Source: Mariannaea sp. PMI_226 (taxonomy: Eukaryota > Ascomycota > Sordariomycetes > Hypocreales > Nectriaceae). From it: a stretch of DNA of 64,000 nucleotides. Positions 1 to 19,821 of the stretch are shown here, in pieces. The translations under genes were made by a program, and so were the position numbers. The stretch's first letter is position 1. Each line of letters begins with the position of its first letter. Below the pieces are notes generated by a model. It did no database searches. It was not told the origin of the DNA and saw only the letters and a program-made list of their open reading frames with translations. The stretch is taken from assembly GCA_024336345.1 (NCBI GenBank), contig JANFOG010000010.1:1426001-1490000 (forward strand), written 5' to 3'.

Positions 1-1610
1 AGAGATGGAGCCATCATCTCGCACGAACCCCCTATTATTAGTTGTAGTAGGCTATTAGTAAAATACTCATTAAATGACAAAAGAAAGAAAAGGGGAACAA
101 AAGAAAAATACGGTTTAATCCATTTTATACGTACCAGTCTTGAAGGTCCTGTGAAGCACGCGAGATGGCCTCTGGATTTGGGGCATCAATCCAATCCATG
201 TCGACGACTCTGTTGTTGCCGCTAGCCAGTAGCCTTAGGACTGCTGCATGAACTGACGAACAGCGGATAGCTGGCTCCGTTGAAAGGGCCATGCGATCAA
301 AGTCTTGCTTGCTATAGAGTCTATAGCAAACACCATCTCTTGTTCGACCCGCTCGGCCTGTGCGTTGCCTTGCTGAGGCCTGAGAGATTGGCAGCACCGA
401 GAGCATCTCCATAGCAAGGCGAGGACAGTATATCATCTGCCTCGATAGGCCGGTATCGACAACATAGACGACATTGTCGATCGTGAGGCTGGTCTCTGCA
501 ATATTTGTAGAGACAATACATTTGCGGTTTGGGCCGGAGGAGTGCAGGGCCCGCTTCTGTTCACCAGCAGCCATTGTCGCGTGGAGAGGGAAGACGTCGA
601 GATTCTTGGCGATCTCCTGTACCATCTCGCAGACTTGACTGATTTCACCTTCACCAGGAAGAAAGACGAGGATATTCCCCGGCCCATGATTCTGGTGGAT
701 GTGCTGCACGGTATTGGCAGCCAAAACGCTGCAGTGTGACGAGGCCTGCCCCGACGCTATGTAGCGGACATCGACCTGGTAGTTGCGCTGTATATAAGGA
801 GGTCACATTAACAGGCAAGTCTATATTATATAAGGTGAAGCAAAGGTTTAAACTTACGCCTTCAATGTGGACCAAGGGGCAATTGTTGAAGTAGTCTTGA
901 AACAACTTCGCATCCACCGTGGCCGACATGATGATGACCTATTATAATCAGGGTTAGATAGGTCCATACGACTAAGTAATCAAATGAAGTAATAAAAGAG
1001 GGGGGGGGGGGGTGTCAAGGGAGCATACCTTTAGATCCTTTCGACGGCAAAGGATCTGCTTCAACAGCGCCATGAGCATATCTATTTCGACGGTTCGCTC
1101 ATGCGCTTCGTCGATGAGGATGCAGGCGTACTCCAACAGGTCTTTATCTGAGACCTGCTTGGCAAGGAGAACGCCTTCCGTCAAATAGGCAAGCCGAGTT
1201 TTCTTCCCATTGCTGTCGACTTGCCTATCGCCACCAATCTGGTAGCCAATCTCCTCGCCCAACGCAACTCCCATCTCCTGAGCGACACGTTGGGCGAGGT
1301 TGGTTGCGGCTAACCGCCGCGGTTGGGTGCAGGCAATGCGTAGGCCGCTTGCATATTCGTCGTAAACCAGCATCTGGGGGAGCTGGGTCGACTTGCCTGA
1401 CCCGGTTTCGCTCGATAGAACGAAGACCTGATTCTGGTGATATACATCAAGTATTTCACCAAACTTTTTGTAGACCGGTAACTTGCGTCGGTCTACAAGA
1501 ATCTTTTCATGACTGGTAGGCCACGCCTTGCCAGTCAGCGGATTGGTTGTGGCGTCTTCGAGACGCTTGATTTGGGCCATAGTGACCTGGTTGCGAATGA
1601 TGGACTCCAT
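1..1610 (-). CDS. Prp43-like DEAH-box RNA helicase, 3' end beyond window
   Basis: Likely CDS complement(join(<1..31,135..787,858..938,1029..1610)). It is an ATP-dependent RNA helicase of the DEAH/RHA class. Visible motifs are Walker A SETGSGKST (about residues 67-75), Ia TQPRRLAA (95-102), DEAH (167-170), SAT (199-201), NIAETSLTI (about 316-324) and QRTGRAGR (about 362-369). The N-terminal NPLTGK is the segment found before the core in Prp43. All introns have GT-AG ends, and the last has a CTAAT branch site. The terminal exon fragment (reads WGFVRDDGSIS across the junction) resembles the start of the winged-helix region, so the ratchet and OB-fold lie outside the window. The IGYQIGGDRQ segment replaces the usual Prp43 text, suggesting an accessory paralogue rather than the core splicing/ribosome factor. 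An intron holds a G-run near 1001-1013. The start was chosen as the first in-frame ATG after an AT-rich leader. Confidence 0.85.
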
Positions 1611-2102: not shown

Positions 2103-2772
2103 ATGACACGTTACGACGAGCAGTTTGAGAGCCAACTCGCATACATGCGAAGCCAGCGACAACTCCTAGTCGCTAAAAAAATCCCTTTCGAGTTTACCTG
2201 CTCAGAATTTGAGCAAGCTTGCTGCACCAAGCTCAGCAAGCCACAAACCGTCAAGTTCTTCTGGCGGAAGGTGGAGAAGCCTTGGCACAAGCATCGTGGT
2301 TGGGTGATGCTTGGGTTTCGGCTACGGTCTGATTGCAGACTAGCTGAGGAGGAGCTCAAATCCTTTGAGTTCCATGGCCAAGCGATAACAATCGAAAGGG
2401 CAAGCAGGGTGGCTGTGAGTAGCACCTATTCGGGTTGACAACATCTGCTAACTAAATGCAAACTATCTACAGTTTAAACCGCTCAGCTTGAGAACGGCTC
2501 CCCCCGCCGCCCCCACTGGTGCCCCCGCCGCCGACGCTGCCCCCGTCGCTCCCGCCGCCGTTCCTGCCTCTGCCGCTCCCGACACTGTCCCCGACACTGC
2601 TCCTGCTGCTGTTGCTCCCGGCCCCGTCTCTCCCGGCCCCGTCTCTCCCGGTCCCGCCTCTCCCACCGCCGCCTCCCCCACTGCCGCCACCACCACCGCT
2701 GAGGAAGAGGTCGACACTCTACAGTGGGATGGCGCAGATGAAGAGTTTGATCCCGACGAGATCTACGTTTAA
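2103..2772 (+). CDS. RRM-like protein with Ala/Pro-rich tail (paralogue 1)
   Basis: CDS join(2103..2414,2473..2772), 203 aa. The first 104 residues resemble a divergent RNA recognition motif: an RNP2-like strand (QLLVAKKIPFEF), an RNP1-like strand (HRGWVMLGF), then the helix-strand AEEELKSFEFHGQAITIERA. The second exon encodes a low-complexity Ala/Pro/Thr/Ser tail, with VSPGPVSPGPASPT-type repeats, ending in an acidic segment (EEEVDTLQWDG...DPDEIYV). A second copy of the gene lies at 12969-13677 with a first exon of exactly the same length (312 nt) and an intron at the same codon and phase, so the two are true paralogues. RNA binding is inferred from the fold resemblance only. The structured repeat follows 149 nt after the stop. 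I do not recognise a named family. Confidence 0.7.
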
Positions 2773-2910: not shown

Positions 2911-2920
2911 AAAACAAGAA

Positions 2921-3098
2921 GGCGAAAGCCTATCTTACCTGAATAGATGGGGGAAACCTCACTCTATTTTTTCTCTTAATCTGGGTTGCTCCCAGTCACT
3001 TTATGGGTTGAAGATTCCTTGGGCTTCGGCCCTAAAGGTCGTATGACGCTAGCGTCTGGTATCCCTCCGGGGACGTGTGTTCGAATCACACTACGATA
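2921..3098 (+). repeat. Structured tRNA-like 3' element, copy 1
   Basis: Follows the stop of RRM-like gene 1 in the same orientation. In order: hairpin AGGC-GAAA-GCCT; a second GAAA-loop hairpin whose arms are AATAGATGGGG and CCTCACTCTATT; a U-rich stretch; a UUCG hairpin GGGC-TTCG-GCCC (3021-3032); then a tRNA-like cruciform. In the cruciform GTCGTA can pair with TACGAT as an acceptor-like stem, with small hairpins GACGC/GCGTC and TCCC/GGGA, and a perfect T-arm GTGTG-TTCGAAT-CACAC (3075-3091) containing a TFIIIC B-box. It lacks a normal D arm and anticodon arm, so it is not an ordinary tRNA. Three more copies occur at 9702, 11214 (minus) and 13754. Confidence 0.75.
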
Positions 3099-5652
3099 AA
3101 TGGTATTTTCATCCCACTGTGCAGGATACCCCGTCTCTATTATCCCCTCTAGGCATGCGATACAAAGGTTCTTGATGGTACGTTACCCTAATATACGCTA
3201 GGTTTTAGCAACTGACCATTTTATCACGTTCGAGGAACCACGAACGTAGAGGCGCGATACTAGGTTTTTTTTTTGGCCACAGTCATAAGGTTAGTGGCGA
3301 CGTGTAATTCCCGTTCAGGTTCGTATCTCCTCCATCCATCTTGACGTATACATACTTATCTAACTTGCACGCACTTTTCTGGATTGGATCATCAATCTGT
3401 ATGATTGGATCCCTTTGGGTTAAGTGGGAATGCAAGTATGGATAATTCCAATTCTTGCCTTTCAAAACCTGGGGCAGAACCCAACTCTAATTTACAAAGC
3501 TTTTTGAGACAGTTCCTCTATGGGAGTGTCAGTTGTCTCAAAGGCGTCTCTCCCCAGAGCTGGCGAAATCGATTGAGCTCCGCACTGAGGTTGGCGCTGA
3601 GGTTTCAAGGTTCGTACCCATTAGCAAGAGGAGTAGCTGTTTGCAGCAAGTCATATTTTAACCAGTTCTTAGGGTTCCCTTCGTCTTTGAACGAATTTTT
3701 CCCGTTCTCATTCATGTTCATTCAAGTTACGCAACATGCATAGAGGTGACGTGAATCTATGAACTGTTGTACGATAGAAAGAGCGGCAATAGGAGGAAGC
3801 AACAGTACGAACCAGTCATTTTGCTGGTATCAGTGAAATGGATCGATGAGGTGGGAAATGCAACGAAACAATAGTGCAGGGTTGCTCAGTCACGGAAGGC
3901 AGAAATACAGAAACCAGATGATAGAAAAGGCATTATAAAACAGTGGTATCTTTGATCATTTCCGTCGTACTGATATGTTCCGTGGTGCTGGTACTAGTCT
4001 CCGACCCAATACAACAAAGAATGCTACCCACAGTCGTCTCATCTGTTTTCTCAATTCGATTACAGCTTTGCATTGGTCAAGGGTCCCTACACTCTTGCGC
4101 TCTGTAGTCTCTCTATCATACGCTCCTTCCTCACCAGCGGACGCGCTGCCCGACCGGGCGCGTTCGTGGCAGATCACGCTAACCCAAAACCTGCTCCTGA
4201 GTCGCTTCACAAGTAACACGAAATAAATGGAAACTCGCGCCATCGGAGTAGAAAAGAAGCCTGTAAATATAAATCAAATAATGTTACTATCTATTGTAGA
4301 AAGAGACGAGTATCTCTTGCTAAATCTGCAGAGCCCCCTTACTCACCTTGACAACATTGAAGTTGAGGATCACCAACATTAAATTGAGCGGCGCCTTGGA
4401 CGTGAATGGCAAAAATGCAAACCTGGTGTGAGTGATTGATTTTCTTATTGGGTGCATTTGACAATCAGTCGCCCCAATTTTCAAAACAAGCGGTAATTGG
4501 TTCTTTTTGCCGCGTTCACCGCCTTGAGTGATTGCCTCTTGTGGGCTGGTGGGGTTGGTGGGGCTGTTCCCTACGGGGCTGGAAGACATCCTCCGGACCA
4601 TCCCGCGTGGACCCAGTGTCCCCAGCATTTTGACTTCATTCCTCGAGATGCAAAGTGTTTCTGTAAATAAAATAACGTCCGCGTCGCACGATGAGTCTTC
4701 TGTAGTACAAAACAAAACGTATTTTAGCACATATGCTCAGACTAAATTTTAGAAGCTTTTTCATGAATTCAAATTGCATGTGCATTGCTTGCGACTCATT
4801 CAATAACGGCCATTCCAGCGTCGTGAGAATTACCACTTTGATTACCCTAAAGCTACGTCGTCACCTCGTCCCGTGCTGGACCTGTGTGGGCAACGCTCTC
4901 AGGCGGTAATAAACACTTACCGTATTAGACTTGCTATGCACGGTCCCCAACCCCAAGAGATTACGTGTAAACAAGGCAACGGGACGTCAATAAACACATG
5001 CACCGTGGATGGACCTAGTTTGTGTGCATTCAGGCTCGTTACAAGGCCGGTCCTCCGTAGTCATGAAGATTGTACCAATGGAGATGGACATGGGCATAAT
5101 CCCATCAATACTCGATACAACCAGCTTTTGGAAGAGCGAATCTGTCGTTGAGCGACCAGATACGAGTATTAGTCAACATCCATCGACGAACACACAATTG
5201 CTTTTCGTTCTCTTGTAGGCTGTGGGCGAATACTTGCAGGACAAGAGGGAATACTTTGTCAACTGCTTGACCTCAATCTTATTGGCATTTATAGATCTCA
5301 TCAATTGCATACCTCCCATTCTAAGTGATGTTGCCAATCCGTAGGCATTAAGAAGTCCATCCTTAGGTTGGATGATACCCAGCGACAAGTTCAGGACAGT
5401 TCACGATATACGTCATCGCATCGTCCATGGGACATTGGGTTCAAGATCTGGAATCGTGTCGATCCCGCTGGTCTGTCCAACAATATTTAATTTCTCCAAT
5501 TACAGAAATTGATAGACAATGCAGACAGCACACTCCTTTCAGTGCTCGAGTTGGTATGTCGGTTGGAACATGAAGGGCGAGCTGGATGTGGCTTGATGAA
5601 CTTTACGATATATAAACCTGTTTTTTTTACACTCTTTCAACGCTTTAAAGCA
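3099..5652. other. No supported gene
   Basis: About 2.5 kb with only short open frames. A 112-codon frame at 3405-3743 and a 136-codon frame at 4320-4730 (minus) show no recognisable domain, splice structure or codon pattern that would make me call them genes. Confidence 0.5.
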
Positions 5653-5735
5653 GGTCCTTTGGCGCAATGGCTAGCGCATTGCTTTCCGGATTAGGAAACT
5701 GGCAAAGGTTCTAGGTTCGAGTCCTAGGAGGATCG
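5653..5735 (+). tRNA. tRNA-Arg(CCG), with 10-nt intron
   Basis: Full cloverleaf. The acceptor GGTCCTT pairs with GAGGATC, the D stem is GCGC/GCGC, the anticodon stem is TTGCT/GGCAA, the loop reads TT-CCG-G, and the T arm is CTAGG-TTCGAGT-CCTAG. The length of 83 nt equals a 73-nt tRNA plus a 10-nt intron after position 37, the canonical intron site. A T-rich Pol III terminator follows directly (TTTCTTTTT). The anticodon reads CGG codons. Confidence 0.9.
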
Positions 5736-7115
5736 TTTCTTTTTGTTATTCCCTGCTTTTTGATGTTATTCCCGGCTCTTTGTGTGTGGTGTTGATATGT
5801 TGGAGGTTGGAGTGGAAATTGTGGGGCAATGTGGCGCAGGCTGTGGCGGTGGAGCTTATCGCCCCACTATCAATGCGATAGCTGCTGAGTCAGCATTGGA
5901 GCTTATCTCCTCAACGACTGGTTCACAAGATAAACCACCAGTCCGTTCAATCACGCTATAGTCGATATATGTGCAGAATGGGCTGCAATGCGCCTGAACT
6001 TGTGGTCGGATTTTTTCAATGAATTGCCCAAGTTGGATAGTTTGATTCATCTAATGGACAATTCAATTGCTGAGTTGCTGCCTGCTCAAATTACACGACC
6101 TTGTGTGTAGGTCCCGACTTCCCTCAATTTCCTGGCCCAATTTCGGATACGCGCACTGACTCTGAGACCCAGCATTTAGTTGAAGACGAACACTTGGACC
6201 AAGCCGGCCCGTCCCTGTAAGGCTAAGAGACAGGTCGTCACTGCCATTTGCGAAACGGAAAAGAAGATGTAGGCAGTGTAAGTAGTCTGGGATGGGCTTT
6301 ACGAATGGGTTTTTAGCGCAAATGTGAGCAAGGATGATTGGGAGGGAGGAAATGCCTCGAGGAATAGATTGGAGACATCTACGCCTGGGACGTTGGGAAG
6401 AATGGGCGAAGCGGGCAGCAAAATCTGCCTGATGAAGAGTGTTGACCGTCAAGACAAAGATGACGATGGAGTGGGAACACTATATGCTTTCGCGCCTCTC
6501 TAGTAAATAAAAAACATCAATCAAGCATAGAGGTGAAGAGCACACACTTCGTGGGCATTAATTGTGCATCCCGTTCAATCGGTCTTGTGAGGATGTAATG
6601 TTTGGCAACGGTCAATGCACGACAATGAGGTTGAAAACTCAATGAAATCGCAACGCCTCATATATTAATGGTCCCGCGACAGCCTCAACGAAATATTTCC
6701 ACGAATAATCCACTGTACTCTCTTTTGACAGTCACCAATCACCAGAATCGGTCTGCTCCATGATTGCCTGAGCTACTTGAGCTGCCTGAGGCTATCGCCG
6801 ATAAGCTTGCCCTTTGAGGCGGGCACGACACCTTGGCTCCTTCCCAAAGTTGCGATTAGGGCAATCACTTACAAAATGTTGGCCTTATAAGGTATTCCAC
6901 GACGCACAAGTTTCCAAAATGTTATGTACGTACTGCTGTCAAAATCAGATTTGTCAAAGAGTTCCTCATCACAGAAAGAACACCAAAGATTCCACAAAAG
7001 ACTTCATCAAAAGACTTTTTTTTATTTTAAAACCAATTATCCAGGTTCATACTTCTTTCCCATTGTGACAGCTTATACTTTACTTACATTTCAGCAAGCA
7101 ATTTCGGCAAACGCA
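5736..7115. other. No supported gene
   Basis: Intergenic. A 129-codon frame on the minus strand (6063-6452) and a broken plus-strand frame over 6080-6440 could be an old coding relic, but nothing recognisable remains. Confidence 0.45.
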
Positions 7116-9646
7116 ATGGCTCCTCAACAGCGAACCAATGGCGGGCGTCAAGATGCCCAGAAGTCAGGAAGGGCCGGCAGAGCAACTGCCACAAGTAAGT
7201 TTCGGCATTTAATAATAGTATATTATTACCAACTAATAGTCAATTAGAAACCCCATTGTCGGATATATCCGGCAATATTACGTCGGCCAAGTCCTCAAAG
7301 CGAACGATTGAGGACTTCTTCAAGGGCCAAGCTACCAAGAAGCGGCGCCAAGATGGCCCAGAACCGACCACCCCCTCTGCAACAGAGGAACCCCAGGCCA
7401 GCACCGAAAGCCTGGTTGACGAGGATGACGACTGGGCGGAGGACCCAGACACCCCCCGGGACGTGGACGAGGACCTGGGTTCCAGCGCCGAATTGGAACA
7501 ACCAGTTACCGAGGAGAATGGCTGGATCCGAATTGGTCCACAGCCAGCCGGCCTGGGGCATGACATTCACTCCGCCCCGATGTCAAAGGCCAACTCCCTG
7601 CTCAAAAGAAAGCTCCGAATAAGTGGCCAAAACAGTGATGCCAAAGTCCCTGGCACCGATTCGGCCAGTGTGGAAGAGGGCTGTCAAAGGCTAATGCGGG
7701 AGCTGGTGGCCACATTGACGGAGCACACCAACGGCTCCGTCAAGCGCCTGTGCGACTACACGGGCCGAGAAATGAGCTGGGCCCCGGGGCCAAAAACGGT
7801 GTCACTCGAAGCCGTATATCCCTTTGTTTCCTAGGATGGATCATTGCGGTATCACGCGGCCCCGAACGCTCACCTTGTCATGAATGGCTTGAACATGGTG
7901 AAGCGCCGATACCCTATCGCCATCCTTCCCCTGCTGGCCGTTATCCTCAACGCCAATGTCGACACGCAGCAATCGACAATCGCCTGGGCCTTCAACGCAT
8001 TGTGCAACACGGCCAGTTTGCACTATTCCTTCAAGACGGTAGTCTCAGTCAAGGCTACTCGTTTCAAGAACTGGGCGGCATGGGACGAGGCGAAGCAAAG
8101 GGCTATGCTGGAGGCCCTGCGAACAGTTCGAAAGACGCCAACTGTGGATGAGGTATTGTCAACACCAGACCAGCTATTTCGAGTCGATGCCGCTCCCACC
8201 CAGATACGCCAATCATCGTTAATTGACGGTGAAAATTCGCGATGGGAGAGACAATATCCAGTTCTCCTGCGGATCGCGGCTAGATATGAACTCAATAGGA
8301 ACGACTTTGAGTTCTATCTTACTATCCCATTGACAGGGTTAAACAAGCGGGTATTCTACCCGTTCCATGTGCTGTCAAGACCTCAAGCGCAGACAATTGG
8401 ATGGAATTGGTACCATCTCTCTAGGCTCGCCGCTCGGATGCTCAATACAATGCGAAAGAAGTGCAATAAGCACGCAGAAGCAGCGGGCCTTGGGGACAAG
8501 GGCATGAACGAGATCCGCCTTGTCTACTGGATGGTAGCCCACTTCAGCAGCCAGATCCAAACAATCAAGAAGGACATGCCGACCGCCACCCGCGAAGAGA
8601 TCCGGTTCCAGATCCTCGATAGATGGGGCCTGCCTATTGTACCCTGGGTCCAGAATGTGCTTTGCGCTTCCCTTTGCAAAGGGCCCGATCATGGTATCGC
8701 CATGCAATTTGGGATCACCGAGCCGGTCGGCCTAGAGTCTTTCGATCCCGTGAGGCACATTGACCTCAGCAAATGTACGATTACGATCGACACCATCGCG
8801 ACCAACATGGGGATGTGGAACCATCACCGGGACTCCTGGCCACAAATCCGGGAAATCCTCCGTGCCGTCCCGCTTCGCCATCCCCTGTGGCGGATCGACG
8901 ACTGCGCTGGCAACAATATCTGGGGTGCTATGGCGGACCCAACAATCAATCCTACGGTACCGGTCGCGGAATTCGACGTGCCACTGGTGCCGATTGACGC
9001 ATGGTTCCAGAGCTCCGTGCTCCGCCCACGATGCGAGCCCTGCAACGTGGAATTCCAGAACCTCGGTCTGTTGGTGCAGCACTGCCGATGCACCCACAGC
9101 TCCGTTGCCACTCCGATGCAGGAGCCAACCAGTTCCGAGCAAGACGACATTGACGCGAAGTACTGGAGGGACGGATTCACTTGCTCCTGGCCTGATTGCG
9201 ATCGGGTTATGGGCAGCCGTCAACAGCTCGAAAGACACATGCGAATGCATACCAACGATCGAAGATTTCGATGTGACTGGCCGGGTTGTGATTATGCGAC
9301 GGTGGACTCGAGCCACTTGACCACACACAAGAGAATCCACACTCGAGACCAACGATTTGCATGCGACTCACCAGGCTGTGACTATGTCGCGACGAATGCA
9401 CAACGTCTGGCCGACCACAAGATAAGTCACACCCAAGACAAGCCTTGGGCTTGTGACTACCCAGGCTGCGACAAGAAGTACGCTCGGAATGCTGAGCTCA
9501 CCAAACACAAGAAGTCGCATACTGGGCAGGCGGAGTTTCGTTGTGATGAGCCAGGTTGCAATATGGTATGCACTCAGGCTGGAAATCTAAGGAGGCACAA
9601 GGATAGGAGGCATCCGGGTTGGAGGGAAAGGGAGACGACCAAGTAA
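7116..9646 (+). CDS. C2H2 zinc-finger protein with PIP-box-like N terminus, one in-frame TAG
   Basis: Best model join(7116..7194,7248..9646), 825 residues if the single in-frame TAG at 7832-7834 is read through or is an error. The 53-nt intron has GTAAGT, CTAAT and TTAG. The N terminus has KRTIEDFFKG, like a non-canonical PCNA-interacting box, followed by KKRR, then an acidic disordered stretch. The middle (about 240-640) is a conserved-looking globular region that I do not recognise. The C terminus has a degenerate CxxC...H finger, then five TFIIIA-type C2H2 fingers with CxxxxC spacing (for example CDWPGCDYATVDSSHLTTH) and a basic end. A DNA-binding nuclear role is inferred from the fingers. 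Both sides of the TAG are in one frame, so an indel does not explain it. The structured repeat begins 56 nt after the stop. Confidence 0.7.
7832..7834 (+). other. In-frame TAG inside the zinc-finger ORF
   Basis: Splits an otherwise continuous frame after about 220 codons. The possible GT...CCTAG introns that would remove it in frame are only 21 or 36 nt and lack a branch site. CAG to TAG mutation, or UAG to UGG A-to-I mRNA editing as known in Sordariomycete sexual tissue, are alternatives. Confidence 0.8.
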
Positions 9647-9668
9647 TGGTCTACGCCCATACAGACAC

Positions 9669-9696
<28 letters not shown>
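9669..9696. repeat. A homopolymer, 28 nt
   Basis: Run of A directly between the zinc-finger stop codon and structured-repeat copy 2. Confidence 0.9.
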
Positions 9697-9701
<5 letters not shown>

Positions 9702-9909
9702 GGCGAAAGCTGACTTTATTCGGGTAGATGGGGGAAACCTCAATCTATTTACCGCTTGATCTGGGTTCTTCCCTTTGCTTTTATTTGGGTTATCCTTTTG
9801 CTTGATATGGGTCGATCTCTTTGCCTTGTGGTTGATGAATCCCTTGGTCGGGGCAGCATTTGGGCTGATCTCCTCTTGGGGAGAGTGGGTTCGACACCCA
9901 ACCCGTGCC
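9702..9909 (+). repeat. Structured tRNA-like 3' element, copy 2
   Basis: Begins 56 nt after the zinc-finger gene stop. It has the GGC-GAAA-GCT hairpin, the GGTAGATGGGG / CCTCAATCTATT hairpin with GAAA loop, U-rich units of the type TTTTATTTGGGTT, then the segment CTTGGTCGGGGCAGCATT, a TCTCC/GGAGA hairpin and a T-arm-like GTGGG-TTCGACA-CCCA ending in CGTGCC. The 3' half is close to copy 4 and different from copies 1 and 3, so there are two subtypes. Confidence 0.75.
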
Positions 9910-11000
9910 TAACTGTACAAGCTTTTGGTGTCGAGTCGTTGAGAAATATATTGGCTAACGTATGTTTGTGATTAGGGATGTTCACGGGAGTAAAATCGCC
10001 AACCCACATTAGAGTCATCGTCAGTGGTTGATCCAAAGAGATCTTCCATAGCCTTTTATCAACGGCTTTGATAGCGATTCTCGAGCATAAGGAGCGCCTC
10101 CGTGGGGCTTAATCTTACAGATCCCATACCTCTTCCATCTATCCCTGGCGATGATCCCAACTCGACGAAACCTATTCACCATCGGTAGGCTTGGATTTGT
10201 CTAAAGATTTATTGTAATTTGCACATCAACCCAACTCTCGCGACAGACCCTAGACCTTCGTATGGAGTATTCTACTACGCTCACTACTATCCCCCCTGCC
10301 GCTACTGTTGCTACTGCCCCTCTACCTTTGCTCATGCCTAACAGGGGCTGTGGTCGTTGCTGACGACTTCCTTCTGACGACTGCGATAGGACTAGGTAAC
10401 GTAACTTGGACGGGCTGAAGGCGGCTCGGATAACGACAAAGCGTGAGTAACGGTGAATTGTTGGGTTCCGGATACTAAGCAGCTAAATATCCTCACCAAT
10501 CTCGACGTACGTGCTTGCTGGACCTCTACCTGAGAAATTCATGAGTCAGTCTAATGTTACATATAAACGACTGAAGAATCTTTTACTGACCTGAGTGGGG
10601 ATTCTGAAGCACATAAACTTCATTTATTAATACTAGGATATCCATGGCTCTTTCCCATGTGTAAGTAAATATCCAAAAGAGTCAAATCATGATATACCAA
10701 CACTTACTTTATATTAATATGTACTTACTTCGGCCTCCACTTACCTGCTTTCTGAAATCAAGTTGTAGAACGAATTCGTCGCGCATGCGTCTTACCTGGA
10801 GCTCTAGCCTCTGCAAACTCACAGGTTCTCTTGGAGAGAGCGCTTTAGCATAATGCTGGTAGGTTAATAATTAGTCATGAGGAGAGCCACAGGGCCGATT
10901 TGGATGAAGCCCATTCATCCCAGCTCCACGACAACTGCCACCAAAGAAGGTGAAACTAGGACTATACCTTGTAAACTAGAATGGTTTCATGGTAATCATT
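9910..11000. other. No supported gene
   Basis: About 1.1 kb between the two convergent structured-repeat copies (copy 2 plus, copy 3 minus). No ORF, tRNA or repeat was recognised. Confidence 0.5.
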
Positions 11001-11214
11001 GATCGTTGTAGGAATCGAACCTACTTCCTATAAAGGAATACCAGTCCGACCTGAGGGCCGTAGCCCAAGGATTTTCAACCATCAAGCGAAGGGGATGAAC
11101 CCAAATAAAAGCAAATGGGATGAACCCAAAGAAAAGCAAAAGGGAAGAACCCAAATTAAGAGATGAAATAGATTGAGGTTTCCCCCATCTATCCAAATAA
11201 AGTTGGCTTTCGCC
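11001..11214 (-). repeat. Structured tRNA-like 3' element, copy 3
   Basis: On the minus strand, downstream of the minus-strand gene 12475-11398. It carries GGC-GAAA-GCC; the GATAGATGGGG / CCTCAATCTATT hairpin with GAAA loop; three U-rich units of about 27 nt (TTTGCTTTTATTTGGGTT-like); a UACG hairpin GGGC-TACG-GCCC; an acceptor-like GGTCG/CGATC pair; hairpin TTCCT/AGGAA; and a perfect T arm GTAGG-TTCGATT-CCTAC. The UNCG loop and the T stem differ in sequence from copy 1 but stay paired. Confidence 0.75.
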
Positions 11215-11250
11215 TCCTTCTCCCCCTCTCTCTCCTTTTTTTTTTATTTT

Positions 11251-12475
11251 TTATTTTTTTATTTTTTTATTATTTTTGCGTGTGTGTGTATGTGTTTGTG
11301 TGTTCGTGTAGATAATGGACAGGACTGCGTGGGACTCACATGGGCGAGGTTCCAGTGAGATTAGTACGCAGCGGAATGGATGCCATTTAATACTCACCCT
11401 CACGAGTTCCTGGCCAAGCCAAAGAGGTACGTTCCGTTGTGGGTGCCTTATTCGGCCTTCCAACGCGTCCATGGAGGAGCTCGTACAGGGGAAGGGGCGG
11501 TATAGGGCGGGGTGGCAGATTGTGTGCCTCAACGGCTGGTTGAACCGTCTCTACAGCCTCACCAGACTCGTTGACGAAATCGACTGGCGCCATACGATCC
11601 GTGGACCATTCCTCCCTCTTTACTTTGTCCTTGGGGATTAGACGGCCACAGGCTTGCCAGTGTGTGAATTGATCGTAGCCACCCCAGCCAAGACCTACAT
11701 CCGGCGGACGATCATGTTGTGGGACATGCCCAGTCGATGTGGCCGAACGGCAATCGGATACTTGATCCCAGCGGTCCGGGGTCGCATAGGACGCCGATTG
11801 AGCCTTCGTCGCAGGGTCCGATCCATCTTTGCCGATTAGGTCGCCTGGTTTCCATGTGCCATCAGTCCAAGCACGGCTGACAAGTTCGTTGCCACGCGCG
11901 AGATAGCGTCCTGTGTCCGCCAAAGGTTTGTCGGTAGACACGACGTCTCTTGGGCGTTGAGCTCGTGGCCGTGTATCTCGATAGCCCCTGTGTACGTCGA
12001 GAGCAGGTGGTGGAGGGTACTAGATTTCCCACCCTTGGGTCTCGAGACTGGCTACCTCTGCGACCGGGACGACAATATACTCGACTTGCTGCAAGGAGTC
12101 ACCGACTACCTTGCACATAACCATTCCGCGGTGTTTCGACTTTTTGGACGGGCTGGTAGGGACTTCCCGGCTCATAGTGACGAACTCGGTATCAATCTCA
12201 TGCTTGAGTTTGATTGAACCACGGGCATGGAGGCTGGCCAACATGCGAGGTTGGAATCTGGTTGCACCAGATGAGTCCGTAATGACTCGGTGGCATGGTG
12301 CGCCAATGGAGTCAAAGTACGCCTCGTACTTGGGCCAGTCAGCGAGGTGTCGATGGAGGTTGCTTCCAGGATCGTCCTTGTCCTCCTCCCACCTCTTGGG
12401 GATGGCAAAAGAATCACCAGACAAGTTGAGCGACTCCATGGATTCGGTCAACTGCGCGTCAGATTGACGGGACAT
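11251..12475 (-). CDS. Unknown protein, one in-frame TAG
   Basis: Frame opens at ATG 12475 and runs 151 codons to TAG (12022-12020), then continues open in the same frame for about 207 more codons to a GTGAGT splice site after 11398 or a stop at 11387. A possible 73-nt intron (11325-11397, CTAAT branch) joins to a CA/A-rich exon ending at 11251, though that exon may be untranslated. The N-terminal half is acidic and Ser-rich (TESMESLNLSGDSFAIPKR), then has a compact region with SKKSKHRGMVMCKVVGDS. The C-terminal half is rich in Gly, Trp and Pro. I recognise no domain. Either the product is 151 aa with a long 3' UTR, or a ~360-aa protein is interrupted by the TAG. It is divergent from RRM-like gene 2 across 493 bp. 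Confidence 0.45.
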
Positions 12476-12968
12476 TCTGTGTTCATAACAGTTAGTTTAT
12501 TTAACTTTTTTCTTTTTCGAAACGCTGGTTTAAGTGGGGTATTGGGGATATAACTTGCGTGACTATTGTCGGTATATCTTTGTATATTTGAATGTATTTG
12601 AAAGAAAGCTGTGTGCTTGATTTGAAAAGCTGGGAGTATGCTTTGGAGATAATGTGGTTGTGTTGTTGTGGTGTTGTTAGAATGGGTTTGTTGACCTCAC
12701 TACACTGTGGCGTTTGTCATCTTAAAAGTATGGTTTGGAGCCAATCAGAAATAAAGAAATTGGCTTGAGGGAACCAAAAAAAATATAATATAAATTGATA
12801 GCAAACCTCCTGATCACAACAAACTTCTGCCAAACAACCACGCTCATTTCAACGCAGTTAAACACAAACAATTTTCAAAACACCACCACGCCATCATATC
12901 AAAAGGCTTTTTGCTCAAGATCGCTACGGCCCCCTTGAATAGACAAAGGCTGACTTATTAAAAACGAG
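12476..12968. promoter_or_regulatory. Divergent intergenic region
   Basis: Spacer between the unknown minus-strand gene and RRM-like gene 2, AT-rich with CA-rich leaders. The end resembles the leader of RRM-like gene 1: both contain a TTTGCTCAAG segment about 50-60 nt before the ATG, which fits a duplicated 5' flank. Confidence 0.45.
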
Positions 12969-13677
12969 ATGTCTAAGTACGACGCGGAATTCGAGAGCAA
13001 GATCTCGAAACATCGAAGGCGTCAGCAACTACTCGTTGCTAGAAGCCTCCACTTCAGAGCTTCGAAATCGGATTTCGAAGCTTTATGCCGGTCCAAGCTC
13101 AGTGAGCCGGAGACCGTTCAGTTCTTCTGGCAGCCGCCAATGCACCCTTGGCACATGCACCGGGGTTGGGCTATGCTTGCATTCACCAGCCGGCCCCATC
13201 GCAGTCAGGCGGAAGAGGAACTCAAGGACTTGGAGCTCCGCGGTCGCAAAATCGAAATCGTGCAAGCAAAAAGGCGTATTGTAAGTATCAAATATCTCAT
13301 TCTATTGGCACTACTAATACGAAGCGCAGTATGCCCCGTCTACGCAGTCTGTCGCTCCGACCACTGCCTCGACCACCACCGCCCCCTCCACTGCCGCCCC
13401 CTCCACCATGGCTACTACTCTCGTGGCAGCCGTCTCTAGCTACCACACTGAGGCTACCGCAAAACGGCCTCGTGCAGACGACGGCGATTCTGACTTCTTC
13501 CGGGCTCCTAAACGCCCCAAATCTGTCACCGTTGCCGCCAATCCAGCGACAATCACGGCCGTTCCTGAGGCTCATGCGAAACGGCCTCGCGCAGACGAGA
13601 ACGGCTCCGACTCTTCCCGGGCTCCCAAACGCCTCAAATCTTTCGTCATTGATTTGACTTCAAGTGATGACGAGTAA
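12969..13677 (+). CDS. RRM-like protein with NLS-like repeats and SIM-like C terminus (paralogue 2)
   Basis: CDS join(12969..13280,13330..13677), 219 aa. Exon 1 (104 codons) aligns without gaps to RRM-like gene 1 (MSKYDAEFESK, RRRQQLLVAR, HRGWAMLAF, AEEELKDLELRGRKIEIVQA), and the 49-nt intron sits at the identical phase-0 position. The tail differs completely: a Thr/Ser/Ala linker, then two copies of a 25-residue unit (AKRPRAD...RAPKRxKS) that look like nuclear localisation signals, ending in VIDLTSSDDE, a textbook SUMO-interaction-like motif (hydrophobic core followed by acidic/Ser residues). A nuclear RNA-associated role is inferred. The structured repeat starts 77 nt downstream. Confidence 0.72.
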
Positions 13678-13753
13678 GGTATTTACCGATGCTCTCAATC
13701 TCACATCAGCCATCAGCCACCACGGAAATACCTTTCAAATCTCCTCGTGCAGA

Positions 13754-13971
13754 TAGTCGAAAGACTACAGTCTCACATTTCTATAGATGGGGGAAACCCC
13801 AATCTATTTCATCTCTTAGTTAGGGTTTTTCTCTTTTGCTTTTATATGGGTTTTTCCCTTTTGCTTTTATTTGGGTTTTTCCTTTCTCTTGATGGTTTAA
13901 ATCCCTTGGTCGGGGCAGCATTCGGGCTGGTCTCCTCTCGGGGAGAGTGGGTTCGACTCCCACCTCGTGCC
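13754..13971 (+). repeat. Structured tRNA-like 3' element, copy 4
   Basis: Downstream of RRM-like gene 2. The first hairpin is TAGTC-GAAA-GACTA, so the stem sequence is completely changed relative to copies 1-3 while pairing and the GAAA loop are kept. The second hairpin is TATAGATGGGG / CCCCAATCTATT, where one G-U pair of the other copies has become G-C. U-rich units (TTTTGCTTTTATTTGGG) follow, then CTTGGTCGGGGCAGCATT, TCTCC/GGAGA and a perfect T arm GTGGG-TTCGACT-CCCAC with a B-box. Confidence 0.78.
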
Positions 13972-15544: not shown

Positions 15545-15990
15545 ACCGCACGGGTCGATTGCAATCTGGTTGTAAGGATTAATACGTGAGCAACGCGACG
15601 CTTCTCCGCCAGAGTATCGTGAGCCCTGCTGAGATCCACGGCGATGTTCAATTATCGCAGCATTTGCAGTCTTTACTCGACTTTCATAACCATTTCTAGG
15701 TAGACCACCTCCTACGATACCAGCATCTACTTTTAGCGATAGAAGCATTTTCTCCCCGAATTGCCCGCGGACCCAAGCGCAGTCCATGATGCCAAAGTGG
15801 CGATGACACAATATTAGCACATTGACAACATGTGGAATGGAGCTCGGAGTGCAACTTCAACCACCGACTGGCTTTCGACTATGCTTTCTTCTGTCATTCG
15901 CATCTCAATCACTCCAGAGACCAAGTGACTGGCCCGAAATGAGCCAAGGCAGTGCATATTCAACTCGACCCATTCAATAACCCAAAGTGT
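15545..15990 (-). pseudogene. Gene relic, arm 1 of a diverged inverted repeat
   Basis: Read on the minus strand this matches the plus strand at 17040-17521 in several blocks in the same order: CCAAACACT..GGGT/TATTGAAT, GAGCTCCATTCCACATGTTG, AATTCGGGGAGAAA..CTTCTATC, GATGCTGG.ATCGT.GGAGG.GGTCT, TGGATCTCAG and GTTGCTCACGTA. Part of this copy is open (for example NQTLWVIEWVELNMHCLGSF), with stops further on. No family was recognised; it is probably a decayed gene fragment. Confidence 0.55.
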
Positions 15991-17039
15991 TTGGTTCGCT
16001 GTGAGTGTCTTGTCCCAACGCTGCACAGAGTTTGACGTTGACAATATCCGCTTCCAGAAATTTTCCTTTCACTTGACCGTCAGAAATATTTTCGCAGGGC
16101 CAAAAAATTCATTAATTGGCACCCATAGTCCCCCTCACGCCATCTGCCATACATAACTCGTTTCCGCGATGTAGGCAGCTATAGATTAAAGTAGAATCAT
16201 CCCGGAACCCAAACTTTGGCCATATTCAGTCAATAGAGGCAGCAACCAAATGTTTGTAAAAAGAAAAGCTTGCTGTCATATCCAGCGACTATTAAATCTT
16301 TTGTTTAGGTTCCTCAGTGTTCTCTTCTTGAACGAGGAGGTGATTGGTGAACTCTCTTAGTCCCCGAATCACAACCATCAGCGGGCATCTGTAACACAAA
16401 TAGGTCGCGGCTACGCGCGTGAAGGACCGATAAACGACATCTCCCGTCAATTTTTCAGGCCAGCACTCCCTGGTAGCTTATCATATTTGCAGATAGGCCA
16501 CATTTCTCCTCGAAATCTATCTTTGCTGTATTGGATAAAGGCTATTTTAATCGCTCACGTGTCGAATTTTCCGTAAAATATTGCCCGCTTCCGAGGATCG
16601 CAAGCACACTCCTCTCTTGATAGCACACAACAAAGACATCAAAGGCCAACAATAACACAAGCAACACGACTGATCCTTCCTCACGGCCATCTTATTAGAC
16701 GAGCCTCAGTTTAGCATTCAGTTGAGCTAGGCAGTATGGCGGATCTGTCCGTCCACTTGACATTGAGTTTCTGAATAGCCAAGTTCCTCTACTGGCTTCT
16801 CATATGTATTCTCAGAAACCGATGAACGTGCTTTTATATACAGAAACTAGACTCTGCTCGAAGAATTATTGGTACAGGACCGGCCCCATCTGCGTTGGCT
16901 CTAGCTTGAGCAGCGGGACATGGGAGTCAAGTTATCCATTCCGAAATCTAGAGTGTTATGGTGATCAGTTAAGACTATTGATAGGTGTGATTATAATGTA
17001 TTACATAAATGTCCCTCTTGATATATGCGTTATATGAGA

Positions 17040-17521
17040 ACAGTAAACCAAACACTGGAGGGTATTGAATGAATCGAACTGGGTGTGCATTGTCTTGTTT
17101 CATTTCCGGCCTATGTGGCTGGATCACTTAATTTCTAGAGTGACCGAGAGCAAATAATAGAAGAAAAGATAGTCAAAGGCTATATGGAGGGCTAAGTTGC
17201 TTATAAACTCTGAGCTCCATTCCACATGTTGCCAATATGCCAGTATTATGTTATCGCCACACTAGTGTAATTGTCATGATGAACTGTGCTTGACTCCGTG
17301 AGCAGCTCGGGGAGAAATACTTCTATCACGAAAACTAGATGCTGGAATCGTGGGAGGCGGTCTCTCCGGGGGTGGGTGGTTACTAGGGTCGGGAACCAAG
17401 ACTGTAGATGCTATGTTATTCAACAATGGGTGGATCTCAGTGGGCTTGTCAAAGTCTGATGGGGAAGGGTTGCTCACGTACTAATTCTTGTAAATACATA
17501 ACGATCGAAACACCTCGTCAT
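17040..17521 (+). pseudogene. Gene relic, arm 2 of a diverged inverted repeat
   Basis: Homologue of 15545-15990 in opposite orientation. Many differences are C/T or G/A transitions (for example GGTCTCTGGAG against AATTTCTAGAG), giving stops in the corresponding frame, which is consistent with RIP-like mutation. About 1.05 kb separates the arms; that spacer (15991-17039) has no supported gene. Confidence 0.55.
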
Positions 17522-19821
17522 CGTTTTTATCCAACCCAACTACACACAGGCTTGTCGATATCTGAGGTCTCGTTGACTTCACCTCTAAATTTACAGCTCC
17601 TCGGGGACTTCTTCTCTCCATTTCCGTTGTCTGTAAGATATTCTGACTGATATGCCAAGATTCAGGTACCATGATCCATATTTGTTTAATTGAGCAACTT
17701 TCCAGATCTGGTTTCCACCAAAGATCGGCTGCAAAGCTCATATGACCTTTTGCCCAACACCCCTGGTCGTTGCCTTGGCTCACGGATCAATCCTGTCGTC
17801 GCAATATTTGGGAAAGAATCCGGACCATACTTGAGCAATGAAGCAGGATATATCACTGTTTGTTTTCATGGCCGCAAAGGTGCATTTTCTGAGCAGTTTC
17901 TTCATTTTCCTTAGAAATAAAGGCTAAAAATCGCTTTTTAAGGTGGCGCACTGTGTTGTGGTAACGAATTAATGGCTGCTGACAGTAGCTAGGTAGGATA
18001 AAAGAGTACCTTATTCCTCTACCTAAAACTAAAGCTTATAGCATTCAGGGATTTTGCTCATTTCATGATGAGGAAGGACGATAATGCCCATTCGGCCGAT
18101 AGACCAAAGAGATCGAGCAATAATGGAAATGATCGCATTATTCTGTTGCCTCATACCCATTTATAGCGGTTTCCTATCGCAAATTTCAAGATACTACAAG
18201 GGGCTTTCTCAATTAAAACCCTAGCGAATAGGCAATTATCCATTCGCCCTACTGCAACTAACCCCCCCTCTTTGTAACACTCTGATCGGTTTCCAATGGA
18301 TAAACCAGGTCGCGATAGGTTTATATTGGTAATACAATTGGGGCATGATACTCAACAATAGCAGAGGTGTCATTTTTGGGTGTTACGTCTAGTCATGCGC
18401 AAGCATTATGGAAACCAAATTTGTATTGAAAGCCAAGTTACTAAGTAATCTAACATATATTCCTCCTTCATAGGGAAGCAGTAAAGAAGAAAATATAATA
18501 GTAACAATGCAAACAGTTTAAAAACAAATTGTTTTGTCTTTTTTTTATTCTTTTTTTTTTATTATTTGTGCTTTTTCATCTGATTGTGATGACATCCCAC
18601 CTGTGGAGCAGTTCGTCTCTAAGCCTGGTTCACACCTTGTCCCTGGATTGATCCTGCTGCCCGACCGCATATATGGTTCATACTCACATTTCTCAGGCTA
18701 TTACCAGGGACTCAAAATAGGCAGGCCCGACAACTGTTCACTGAATCCATTTTCGTTTGCTTTTGGCTGTGCTTTTTTAAAGGAAAAAGCGCCTCAGTCT
18801 GCCTCGCTCAGAGTAACTTCTCTAAGCCTTTTTTCCCTGGTGTCATTGCCATTTCAGCCGGTTCCATCAGTCGACCTTGAGCTTTTCGCAAATATGCCTT
18901 CCTGCTGTGCCTGAAAAGGACATAACTTCATAAGGCTATCTGCATTCGTTAGTGTCTGGTCGGGAATTAGGACGCTGAAGGCACAGCCCTTGCCAGCAAC
19001 AGCTGGGGCGACAATCGTGCCGTCATACCCGAACTCGAGGACCCTGGCTGCTATCCTCCAATCATAGAAGTGATAGCATTCCAGGGTAGTAATTTTAATC
19101 CAAATAGCTCAAAATTGAACCAGTCGCCAACGCCCTTGAGAGGTAGCAACTACTATGTACATATGATATCTAGTGGTACGGCGTGATTCGCGCTCTTCAC
19201 CATCCAAATTCTCATGCTTGTTGCACGTAGAACCCTCACAAATCGAGGTTGTGCATGGGTTGGTTTTGCCTCTACGTATGTCTACAGATAAGGCTCGGCA
19301 AATTGGCTAGGCATTTATTAGATGAATCCTGGCTTCATATGCAACCTGTTGTCATAGTGCTGTCTCTCGATCGGCGACCTGAGACAAAAAACGAGAGATG
19401 CAGCAGATATCAGCGGCCAACCCTGCTCCGAACAGGATACAAGGGATGGCGGTTAAATGCATAGTAATTCCGCACTTTCCGTAGATTTTCCATCAGAACG
19501 GAATAAGGACAAGTACGCAATCGTATCATTTCTCCCCTATCAACCCTGTCCACAGTACGGATTAAGCGATTAAATAGGCTAGTTACTGAGTTATTGTGTG
19601 TATGCGGGAACCTAACTTCCCCATTTAATCCGAAGACCCTGGTCGAATCTATCTCTAGAAGACGGTCATATATGTGCCCCCCCTCCCTCCCCTTTTCTAC
19701 TATGGTTGTGTTGAACTATTGGAGAACACCTACTTCCGCTTCTGCCCGTCAATCTCCCGGATAACAACAGAATTACCATCATCAAGTATTTCAGAAACAA
19801 CATTTGGTACAGCAATAAACG
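17522..19821. other. No intact gene; possible small relic near 18840-19070 (minus)
   Basis: Mostly AT-rich. On the minus strand about 19070 to 18850, an open stretch reads DWRIAARVLEFGYDGTIVAP... for some 65 codons to a stop. It looks protein-like but has no start, partner exon or recognised domain. Confidence 0.35.

What the first reader, a model, noticed from the sequence alone, without database searches (positions are those of the whole stretch)
2921..13971. Four neighbouring genes share one structured, tRNA-like 3' element
Copies at 2921-3098 (+), 9702-9909 (+), 11001-11214 (-) and 13754-13971 (+) each lie downstream of, and in the same orientation as, a different gene, starting within about 150 nt of the stop: RRM-like 1, C2H2 protein, unknown protein, RRM-like 2. 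No other gene in the window has it. Pairing is supported by sequence change with structure kept: hairpin 1 is AGGC/GCCT, GGC/GCC or TAGTC/GACTA, always with GAAA; hairpin 2 changes G-U to G-C in copy 4; the UNCG hairpin is UUCG or UACG; the T stems differ (GTGTG, GTAGG, GTGGG) but pair. The genes are not all homologous, so the element looks like a selected or mobilised 3' module defining a gene set.
Basis: partly seen in the sequence, partly recalled or inferred. Interest (0 to 1): 0.88.

Follow-up and report, generated by a model that had tools for sequence, protein, structure and literature searches.

The report
Shared tRNA-like tail of clustered genes
In one small gene cluster of a filamentous fungus, five genes of four different families are each followed by a copy of the same folded RNA element that ends in a tRNA look-alike, which suggests an RNA tag, not yet tested, that handles their messages together.

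Summary
The window is from Mariannaea sp. PMI_226 (Hypocreales). Besides the four reported copies, two lie just left of the window (c5, c6). All six known copies sit in one 20-kb stretch of the 42-Mb genome (DNA and pattern searches, not a covariance-model scan). Five are in sense, 51-168 nt after a stop codon: DEAH helicase, two RRM paralogues, a C2H2 protein and an unknown protein of Hypocreales. c6 has no recognised gene. The element has two hairpins, a tandem array and a 3' tRNA-like cloverleaf with a tiny anticodon arm. Fold is kept while sequence changes: c1's cloverleaf is about 50% identical to the common type; a model built without c3 finds c3 at E 1.5e-5. No Rfam family reaches its cut-off. 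Likeliest: a selected 3'-UTR or 3'-end RNA module of an accessory cluster, whose tRNA-like end recruits tRNA-processing or tRNA-binding proteins, with the cluster's own RRM proteins as candidate readers. Transcription, processing and binding are untested. A SINE-like origin and separate small-RNA genes are rivals; scarcity, orientation and lack of clear target-site duplications speak against the first.

The parts
2918..3098 (+). copy c1 of the element, 145 nt after the RRM-like 1 stop
2920..2931 (+). c1 hairpin 1, AGGC GAAA GCCT
2944..2966 (+). c1 hairpin 2 with GAAA loop
3021..3032 (+). c1 UUCG hairpin (GGGC UUCG GCCC), only in c1 and c3
3037..3097 (+). c1 tRNA-like cloverleaf: acceptor GTCGTA/TACGAT, D-like GACG/CGTC, short anticodon-like arm, T arm GTGTG/CACAC
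   Evidence: minimum-energy fold is the cloverleaf
9698..9909 (+). copy c2, 51 nt after the C2H2 stop; preceded by a run of 28 A
9702..9711 (+). c2 hairpin 1, GGC GAAA GCT
9725..9747 (+). c2 hairpin 2
9754..9828 (+). c2 degenerate 23-24-nt tandem array
9846..9909 (+). c2 cloverleaf, type B
11001..11218 (-). copy c3, 168 nt after the unknown-protein stop
11205..11214 (-). c3 hairpin 1, GGC GAAA GCC
11169..11191 (-). c3 hairpin 2
11084..11156 (-). c3 25-nt tandem array, 2.9 copies
11055..11066 (-). c3 UACG hairpin (GGGC UACG GCCC), only in c1 and c3
11001..11051 (-). c3 tRNA-like part without D arm, T arm GTAGG/CCTAC, acceptor GGTCG/CGATC; its minimum-energy fold is a different one that pairs the T loop
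13752..13971 (+). copy c4, 74 nt after the RRM-like 2 stop
13754..13767 (+). c4 hairpin 1, TAGTC GAAA GACTA
13784..13806 (+). c4 hairpin 2 (G-U to G-C change)
13823..13882 (+). c4 25-nt tandem array, 2.4 copies
13908..13971 (+). c4 cloverleaf, type B (an alternative fold is slightly better)
1..1610 (-). 5' part of a DEAH helicase gene whose modelled stop is at C2:1425163, left of the window, followed after 140 nt by copy c5 (C2:1425022-1424757)
2103..2772 (+). RRM-like 1 gene, two exons as modelled here
7844..9646 (+). C2H2 zinc-finger protein ORF (TTG at 7844; true start may lie further 5')
11387..12475 (-). unknown protein; relatives with a named host are all Hypocreales; one in-frame TAG
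12969..13677 (+). RRM-like 2 gene (219-aa product identical to P0001), two exons

Best explanation
The element is a cis-acting structured RNA module carried in the 3' untranslated part, or forming the 3' end, of the messages of one accessory gene cluster in a hypocrealean fungus. Shown: a shared architecture (hairpin 1 and hairpin 2 with GNRA loops in c1-c5, tandem array with U-rich spacers, cloverleaf with tRNA-like acceptor and T arm), sense position 51-168 nt after five stop codons, and change of sequence with pairing kept. Inferred: it is transcribed with the gene. The cloverleaf has an invariant T-loop start (TTCGA) and an acceptor stem next to the T arm but only a 4-6-nt anticodon-like loop, so it is unlikely to decode; it most likely works as a substrate or ligand of proteins that read the top half of a tRNA (RNase P, RNase Z, CCA-adding enzyme, export or elongation factors). 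It would thereby define or protect the 3' end or give these messages a common fate. The cluster's own RRM proteins and helicase are candidate readers, which would make it a self-regulated RNA regulon.
For: Six copies share the 3' module; five are in sense 51-168 nt after a stop. c3 is recovered by a model not trained on it. In MAFFT alignment A5 (5 copies, c3 left out) 92.3% of 104 cells pair, against at most 60.6% when partners are slid, and 5 pairs change on both sides against 1.0 in shuffles. The cloverleaf of c1 is 49-57% identical to the others while its minimum-energy fold is the cloverleaf. Hairpin 1+2 regions fold better than the shuffle mean in 6 of 6 (z -1.66 to -4.65). Homology among c2, c4 and c5 stops at or within about 10 nt of the cloverleaf's end. 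RRM-like 2 has an RRM-type predicted fold (195 PDB matches at E <= 0.001, most of the 50 rows shown naming RRM proteins; PDB sequence profile of both paralogues, best E 0.0037) and RRM-like 1 is 48% identical to it; one gene is a DEAH helicase with helicase and OB domains. A partial Clonostachys record begins with an RRM-like tail joined to the unknown protein (P0007; E 6e-7 for the pair with RRM-like 1), so these two families are neighbours, or merged by gene prediction, in another genus.
Against: No transcript data: that the element is in the mRNA is inferred. c6 has no recognised gene. Cloverleaf energies alone are not better than shuffles (z 0.05 to -1.94); c3, c4 and c6 have a lower-energy alternative in which the T loop is paired with the D side. 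In one search the number of further pair types (8) is not above shuffles (mean 8.8). R3 finds c1 and c3 only at E 0.029 and 0.19. R2 did not find the hairpins of c6 at E 10. Mini-hairpins in the array are above shuffles in c6 (6 of 300 as high) and weakly in c3 (22) and c1 (34), not in c2 (104), c4 (198) or c5 (177). No other species could be examined for the element.
Confidence: 0.58

Rival explanations
1. A short non-autonomous mobile element (SINE-like, tRNA-related) that inserted or was copied repeatedly inside this region and landed downstream of genes.
For: tRNA-like part with a B-box-like T arm; type B resembles own tRNAs more than shuffles do (best 15.5-18.5 against shuffled maxima 10-12); mosaic relations between copies; other diverged local duplications nearby; copies linked to genes of different families.
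Against: Six known copies, all within 20 kb of 42 Mb; 5 of 6 in sense just after a stop; no convincing target-site duplication (longest shared string of at least 4 nt between the 20-nt flanks: none in c1-c3, 5, 4 and 7 nt in c4-c6; shuffled 95% point 6); in a SINE the tRNA part is 5' and the tail 3' (recalled), here the cloverleaf is last.
Confidence: 0.17
2. Separate small-RNA genes (RNA polymerase III or other) that happen to sit after these genes.
For: B-box-like GGTTCGANNCC in five of six copies (box definition recalled); weak tRNA-Sec match at c6 (18.3 bits, cut-off 47).
Against: c1 changes the box to TGTTCGANNCA while the T stem stays paired; no run of five or more T in the 20 nt after any of the six (flanks; runs of four in c1 and c2); ARAGORN and Rfam at its cut-offs find none of the four window copies; distance and sense relative to genes unexplained.
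Confidence: 0.12
3. Leftover of local segmental duplication with no function.
For: RRM-like 1 and 2 are paralogues (48%) and the area holds other diverged duplicates.
Against: Apart from 54 nt after c4/c6 and the RRM genes themselves, the flanks of the copies show no homology to each other; three of the genes show no similarity to the rest; the fold is kept at about 50% identity in c1.
Confidence: 0.1

Closest known systems
mascRNA / MALAT1-type 3' tRNA-like structure (PMC9976931, passages seen; further details recalled)
   Same: Near-cloverleaf without a usable anticodon loop, at the 3' side of a longer transcript; U-rich stretches upstream (recalled)
   Different: There one mammalian lncRNA; here six copies, five after different protein-coding genes of a fungus; two upstream hairpins and a tandem array; processing not shown
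Viral 3' tRNA-like structures (TYMV type; PMC9976931, passages seen)
   Same: tRNA-like fold at the 3' end of an RNA; in multipartite viruses shared by several RNAs (recalled)
   Different: Acceptor here is a plain helix, with a bulged U in type B, and no pseudoknot is needed to form it; chromosomal genes with introns; no significant viral Pfam match among the proteins scanned
tRNA-like structures in mRNAs of aminoacyl-tRNA synthetases (PMC9976931, passages seen)
   Same: tRNA mimicry within messages used for regulation
   Different: The first ones described there lie in 5' UTRs and mimic the anticodon; here 3', and the anticodon arm is minimal
tRNA-derived SINEs (recalled)
   Same: tRNA-like sequence plus a non-tRNA body and tandem repeats
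   Different: Six known copies in one locus, order reversed, no clear target-site duplications

Membership tests
Nuclear tRNA gene (Rfam RF00005) | score above the family's gathering cut-off | tested here: not met
   no RF00005 match at c1-c6 even at E 10; best related hit is tRNA-Sec, 18.3 bits at c6, cut-off 47
Nuclear tRNA gene (Rfam RF00005) | 7-nt anticodon loop | tested here: not met
   loops of 4 to 6 nt in the folds and alignments shown
mascRNA-like 3' tRNA-like structure | cloverleaf with acceptor and T arm, no usable anticodon loop | tested here: met
   c3 lacks the D arm, and c3, c4, c6 have a lower-energy alternative
mascRNA-like 3' tRNA-like structure | match to the mascRNA Rfam family (its presence in Rfam is recalled) | tested here: not met
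mascRNA-like 3' tRNA-like structure | cut by RNase P and RNase Z to make the 3' end | not testable with these tools
   needs RNA
SINE retroposon | many dispersed copies | tested here: not met
SINE retroposon | target-site duplications | tested here: inconclusive
   only c6 (7 nt) is above the shuffled 95% point of 6
Polymerase III gene | A and B boxes and a T-run terminator | tested here: not met
   B box altered in c1, no run of 5 T after any copy; A box not scored; box definitions recalled
Viral 3' tRNA-like structure | acceptor formed with a pseudoknot | tested here: not met
   acceptor is a simple helix; pseudoknots elsewhere not examined

The most novel reading that the evidence does not exclude
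A fungal gene cluster uses its own genome-encoded message ends: each gene carries a 3' module ending in a decoy tRNA that is cut by tRNA enzymes, so that the messages end in, or just before, a tRNA-like cap instead of an ordinary poly(A) tail (the run of 28 A before c2 and the A-rich stretches before c1 and c3 standing in for one), and the cluster's two RRM proteins and helicase read the module, making the cluster a self-contained RNA regulon.
Probability: 0.2. Interest if true: 0.88.

Novelty: new variant of a known kind. Interest (0 to 1): 0.67.

Why it matters
Cellular tRNA-like structures at the 3' side of transcripts are known from few RNAs (recalled). A chromosomal gene cluster in which five genes from four families share one would be a new way to give messages a common fate, and it comes with candidate readers (RRM proteins, helicase) encoded in the same cluster. 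The prediction is cheap to test with fungal RNA-seq.

Tried and rejected
Isotype parentage: with 18 distinct sequences the type B cloverleaf looked like tRNA-Lys. With 34 distinct tRNAs, tRNA-Arg scored higher than Lys for 4 of 4 type B copies, and after shuffling all but the T arm and what follows, the Lys score was reached in 42, 158, 74 and 44 of 500 shuffles (c2, c4, c5, c6), so the Lys lead was dropped. c1 scored 11.0 (tRNA-His) against shuffled maxima of 12.5 and 10.0; c3 9.5 against 10.0: not convincing. The set is partial: one search scored 63 of 1269 candidates.

Mini-hairpins of the array looked regular by eye, but are not above shuffles in c2, c4 or c5; kept for c6, weak for c3 and c1.

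Weak hairpin-model rows: L006:5752 (E 4.7) was read and shows no element; L008 (E 0.56) was not followed up; L010:8847 (E 4.9) lies inside c5. The weak hit of R1 and R3 at L007 is a tRNA-Gln gene.

A broken fragment of the C2H2 gene at C2:1387.1-1387.6 kb was checked for an element: none found.

Structure of the unknown protein: low confidence (mean pLDDT 43.3), no fold search made. Pattern scans of viral and prokaryote contigs gave 0 matches, little to learn for a fungal element.

Weak Rfam rows overlapping the element were taken as chance: CrcZ at 9667-9782 (+) and 11107-11279 (-), 14.1 and 13.0 bits against a cut-off of 95, and MIR847 at 11103-11264 (+), 18 against 184.

Literature: some searches ran; I saw their listings and found no such fungal element in them; passages of PMC9976931 and PMC6416283 (nothing on point) were seen. 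Searches failed or timed out, so absence from print is not established.
Full report
What is there. The window is C2:1426001-1490000 of a 42.2-Mb genome in 25 contigs. The RRM-like 2 protein is identical to a record of Mariannaea sp. PMI_226 on a contig of the same length as C2 (1,673,392), so the organism is that fungus (Hypocreales, Nectriaceae). Searching the genome with c4 gives five places, all between C2:1420554 and 1439972 (c1 is not among them). Searches with c1, with hairpin 2 allowing three mismatches (five places, control pattern 0), with a T-arm/acceptor pattern and with c6 add no place outside this 20-kb interval, apart from three one-mismatch hits that look like chance (seven hits in all, four of them copies; the reversed control pattern gave six). 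The search tool scores only its best candidates and refuses covariance models on this genome, so diverged copies elsewhere are not excluded. Two copies lie left of the window: c5 (C2:1425022-1424757, minus) and c6 (C2:1420892-1420557, minus).

Position relative to genes. c1 to c5 follow RRM-like 1, the C2H2 protein, the unknown protein, RRM-like 2 and the DEAH helicase in sense, 145, 51, 168, 74 and 140 nt after the stop (c4 corrected by one base; the helicase stop rests on my exon model). c6 has no recognisable gene upstream among the ORFs listed, and none of the seven protein pieces of the cluster matches there. Under random placement and strand the chance of 5 of 6 within 170 nt is about 2e-8 to 2e-7, or 1e-6 to 6e-6 if the RRM pair counts once (this ignores other dependence). 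Models R1, R2 and R3 over 114 kb on both strands show the element after no other gene.

Architecture. From 5' to 3': hairpin 1 (GAAA loop in c1-c4, GCAA in c5, CAAC in c6); hairpin 2 (loop GAAA in c1-c4, GCAA in c5; c6 has GACTG...CAGTC where the others have TAGAT...ATCTA or a near form, aligned by eye and not found by R2); a tandem array with period 25-26 nt in c3, c4, c5, 23-24 in c2 and 20-22 in c6, about one unit in c1 by eye; then the cloverleaf. Type B (c2, c4, c5, c6) has acceptor GGYCGGG/CYCGuGCC with a bulged U, D-like arm CAGC/GCTG, a short anticodon-like arm and a T arm. c1 and c3 have an extra UUCG or UACG hairpin before it; c1 has GTCGTA/TACGAT and GACG/CGTC; c3 lacks the D arm. 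The T loop starts TTCGA in 6 of 6. Homology between c4, c2 and c5 ends at or within about 10 nt of the end of the cloverleaf; c4 and c6 share 54 nt more.

Is the structure real? For: on MAFFT alignment A5 (c1, c2, c4, c5, c6), 92.3% of 104 cells pair, against 44-61% with partners slid by 1-3 columns; five pairs change on both sides against 1.0 in shuffles (0 of 500 as high), and the covariation score is reached in 5 of 500. Model R1, trained without c3, finds c3 at E 1.5e-5. c1's minimum-energy fold is the cloverleaf, and c2 and c5 fold close to it, although c1 is only 49-57% identical to the others in this part. Hairpin 1+2 regions are more stable than the shuffle mean in 6 of 6 (z -2.60, -2.49, -3.04, -3.22, -1.66, -4.65 for c1-c6). 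Against: cloverleaf energies alone are ordinary (z 0.05 to -1.94); c3, c4 and c6 have a lower-energy fold that pairs the T loop with the D side, which could be a switch or a sign that the cloverleaf is not the working form there; the number of further pair types is not above shuffles (8 against 8.8); R3 finds c1 and c3 only at E 0.029 and 0.19, below an antisense match on c6; mini-hairpins in the array are above shuffles in c6 and weakly in c3 and c1, not in c2, c4 or c5. My hand alignment (184 of 190 cells paired, 15 double changes) was made to pair, with c6 and c3 left out of one helix each, and is illustrative.

The genes. RRM-like 1 and 2 are the only two of their kind found in this genome (48% identical; the next match, on C21, has E 0.19). 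Pfam has no match above its cut-off, but a profile against PDB sequences hits mainly RRM proteins (37 matches at E <= 10, best E 0.0037), and the predicted model of RRM-like 2 (block means 65-94 over residues 1-100, overall mean pLDDT 65.7, pTM 0.43) matches RRM structures (195 matches at E <= 0.001). In a word-based search of 5.8 billion proteins RRM-like 2 has one relative besides its own record, in Paramyrothecium foliicola. The unknown protein has nine relatives besides its own record; six have a named host, all Hypocreales (lineages); one copy was found in this genome, with an in-frame TAG where relatives read on. A partial Clonostachys record joins an RRM-like tail to this unknown protein, so these two families are neighbours, or were merged by gene prediction, in a second genus. 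The C2H2 protein has a 43% paralogue on contig C19 and a broken 87-92% identical fragment about 46 kb upstream, without an element. Hence an accessory, locally duplicated cluster with three likely RNA-binding or RNA-remodelling proteins among five.

How it may work. The part of a tRNA that processing and transport proteins read, acceptor plus T arm, is kept; the decoding part is not. This points to tRNA mimicry for processing or binding rather than decoding, as in mascRNA, which lacks a conserved anticodon loop (PMC9976931, passages seen). The conserved 5' hairpins and the U-rich array are natural sites for the cluster's RRM proteins. A-rich sequence precedes the element in c1-c3 (40, 67 and 44% A; run of 28 A in c2), but not in c4 (27%) and c5 (14%, T-rich), so a genome-encoded tail is only a possibility. 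All steps after 'structured element in sense after the stop' are inference.

Relation to known families. No Rfam family reaches its cut-off at any copy (for c5 and c6 only the E-value search was run). At E 10 the tRNA-related hit is tRNA-Sec at c6, 18.3 bits against 47; rows for CrcZ and MIR847 far below their cut-offs overlap c2 and c3 and are taken as chance. It works like, at most, a cellular 3' tRNA-like structure; it is not a member of the mascRNA family by Rfam. It is not recognised as a nuclear tRNA, has no clear polymerase III terminator, and is not seen as a dispersed SINE. No particular tRNA can be named as its parent.

Limits. 

Noticed in passing
12475-11387 (-), TAG near 12022: The unknown-protein gene has an in-frame TAG where relatives such as P0004 and P0005 read W; either a 45-nt intron (GTGGG...ACAG) or a broken gene. 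The public model P0003 starts later and splices around it.
   Followed up: partly
L007:1149-1614 region, C2:1387.1-1387.6 kb (-): Internally deleted fragment of the C2H2 gene, 87-91% identical in three blocks, with no element found by it.
   Followed up: yes
13908-13971, 11001-11051 (-), c6: In c3, c4 and c6 the lowest-energy fold pairs the D side with the T loop instead of forming the cloverleaf; a two-state switch is conceivable.
   Followed up: partly
15574-16002 and 17040-17489: Diverged inverted repeat (460 nt, 69%) with about 1 kb between the arms; a DNA search of the genome showed no other copy.
   Followed up: partly
17502-17863 and L010:5295-5648: Segment duplicated within the region (74% over 367 nt, no open frame seen in the aligned translations), one copy about 400 nt from c6; conserved for no known reason.
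   Followed up: partly
5653-5735: An ordinary intron-containing tRNA gene (called Arg(CCG)) lies inside the cluster between RRM-like 1 and the C2H2 gene.
   Followed up: no
P0001 residues 209-219: RRM-like 2 ends in FVIDLTSSDDE, which looks like a SUMO-interacting motif (recalled), after two basic repeats.
   Followed up: no
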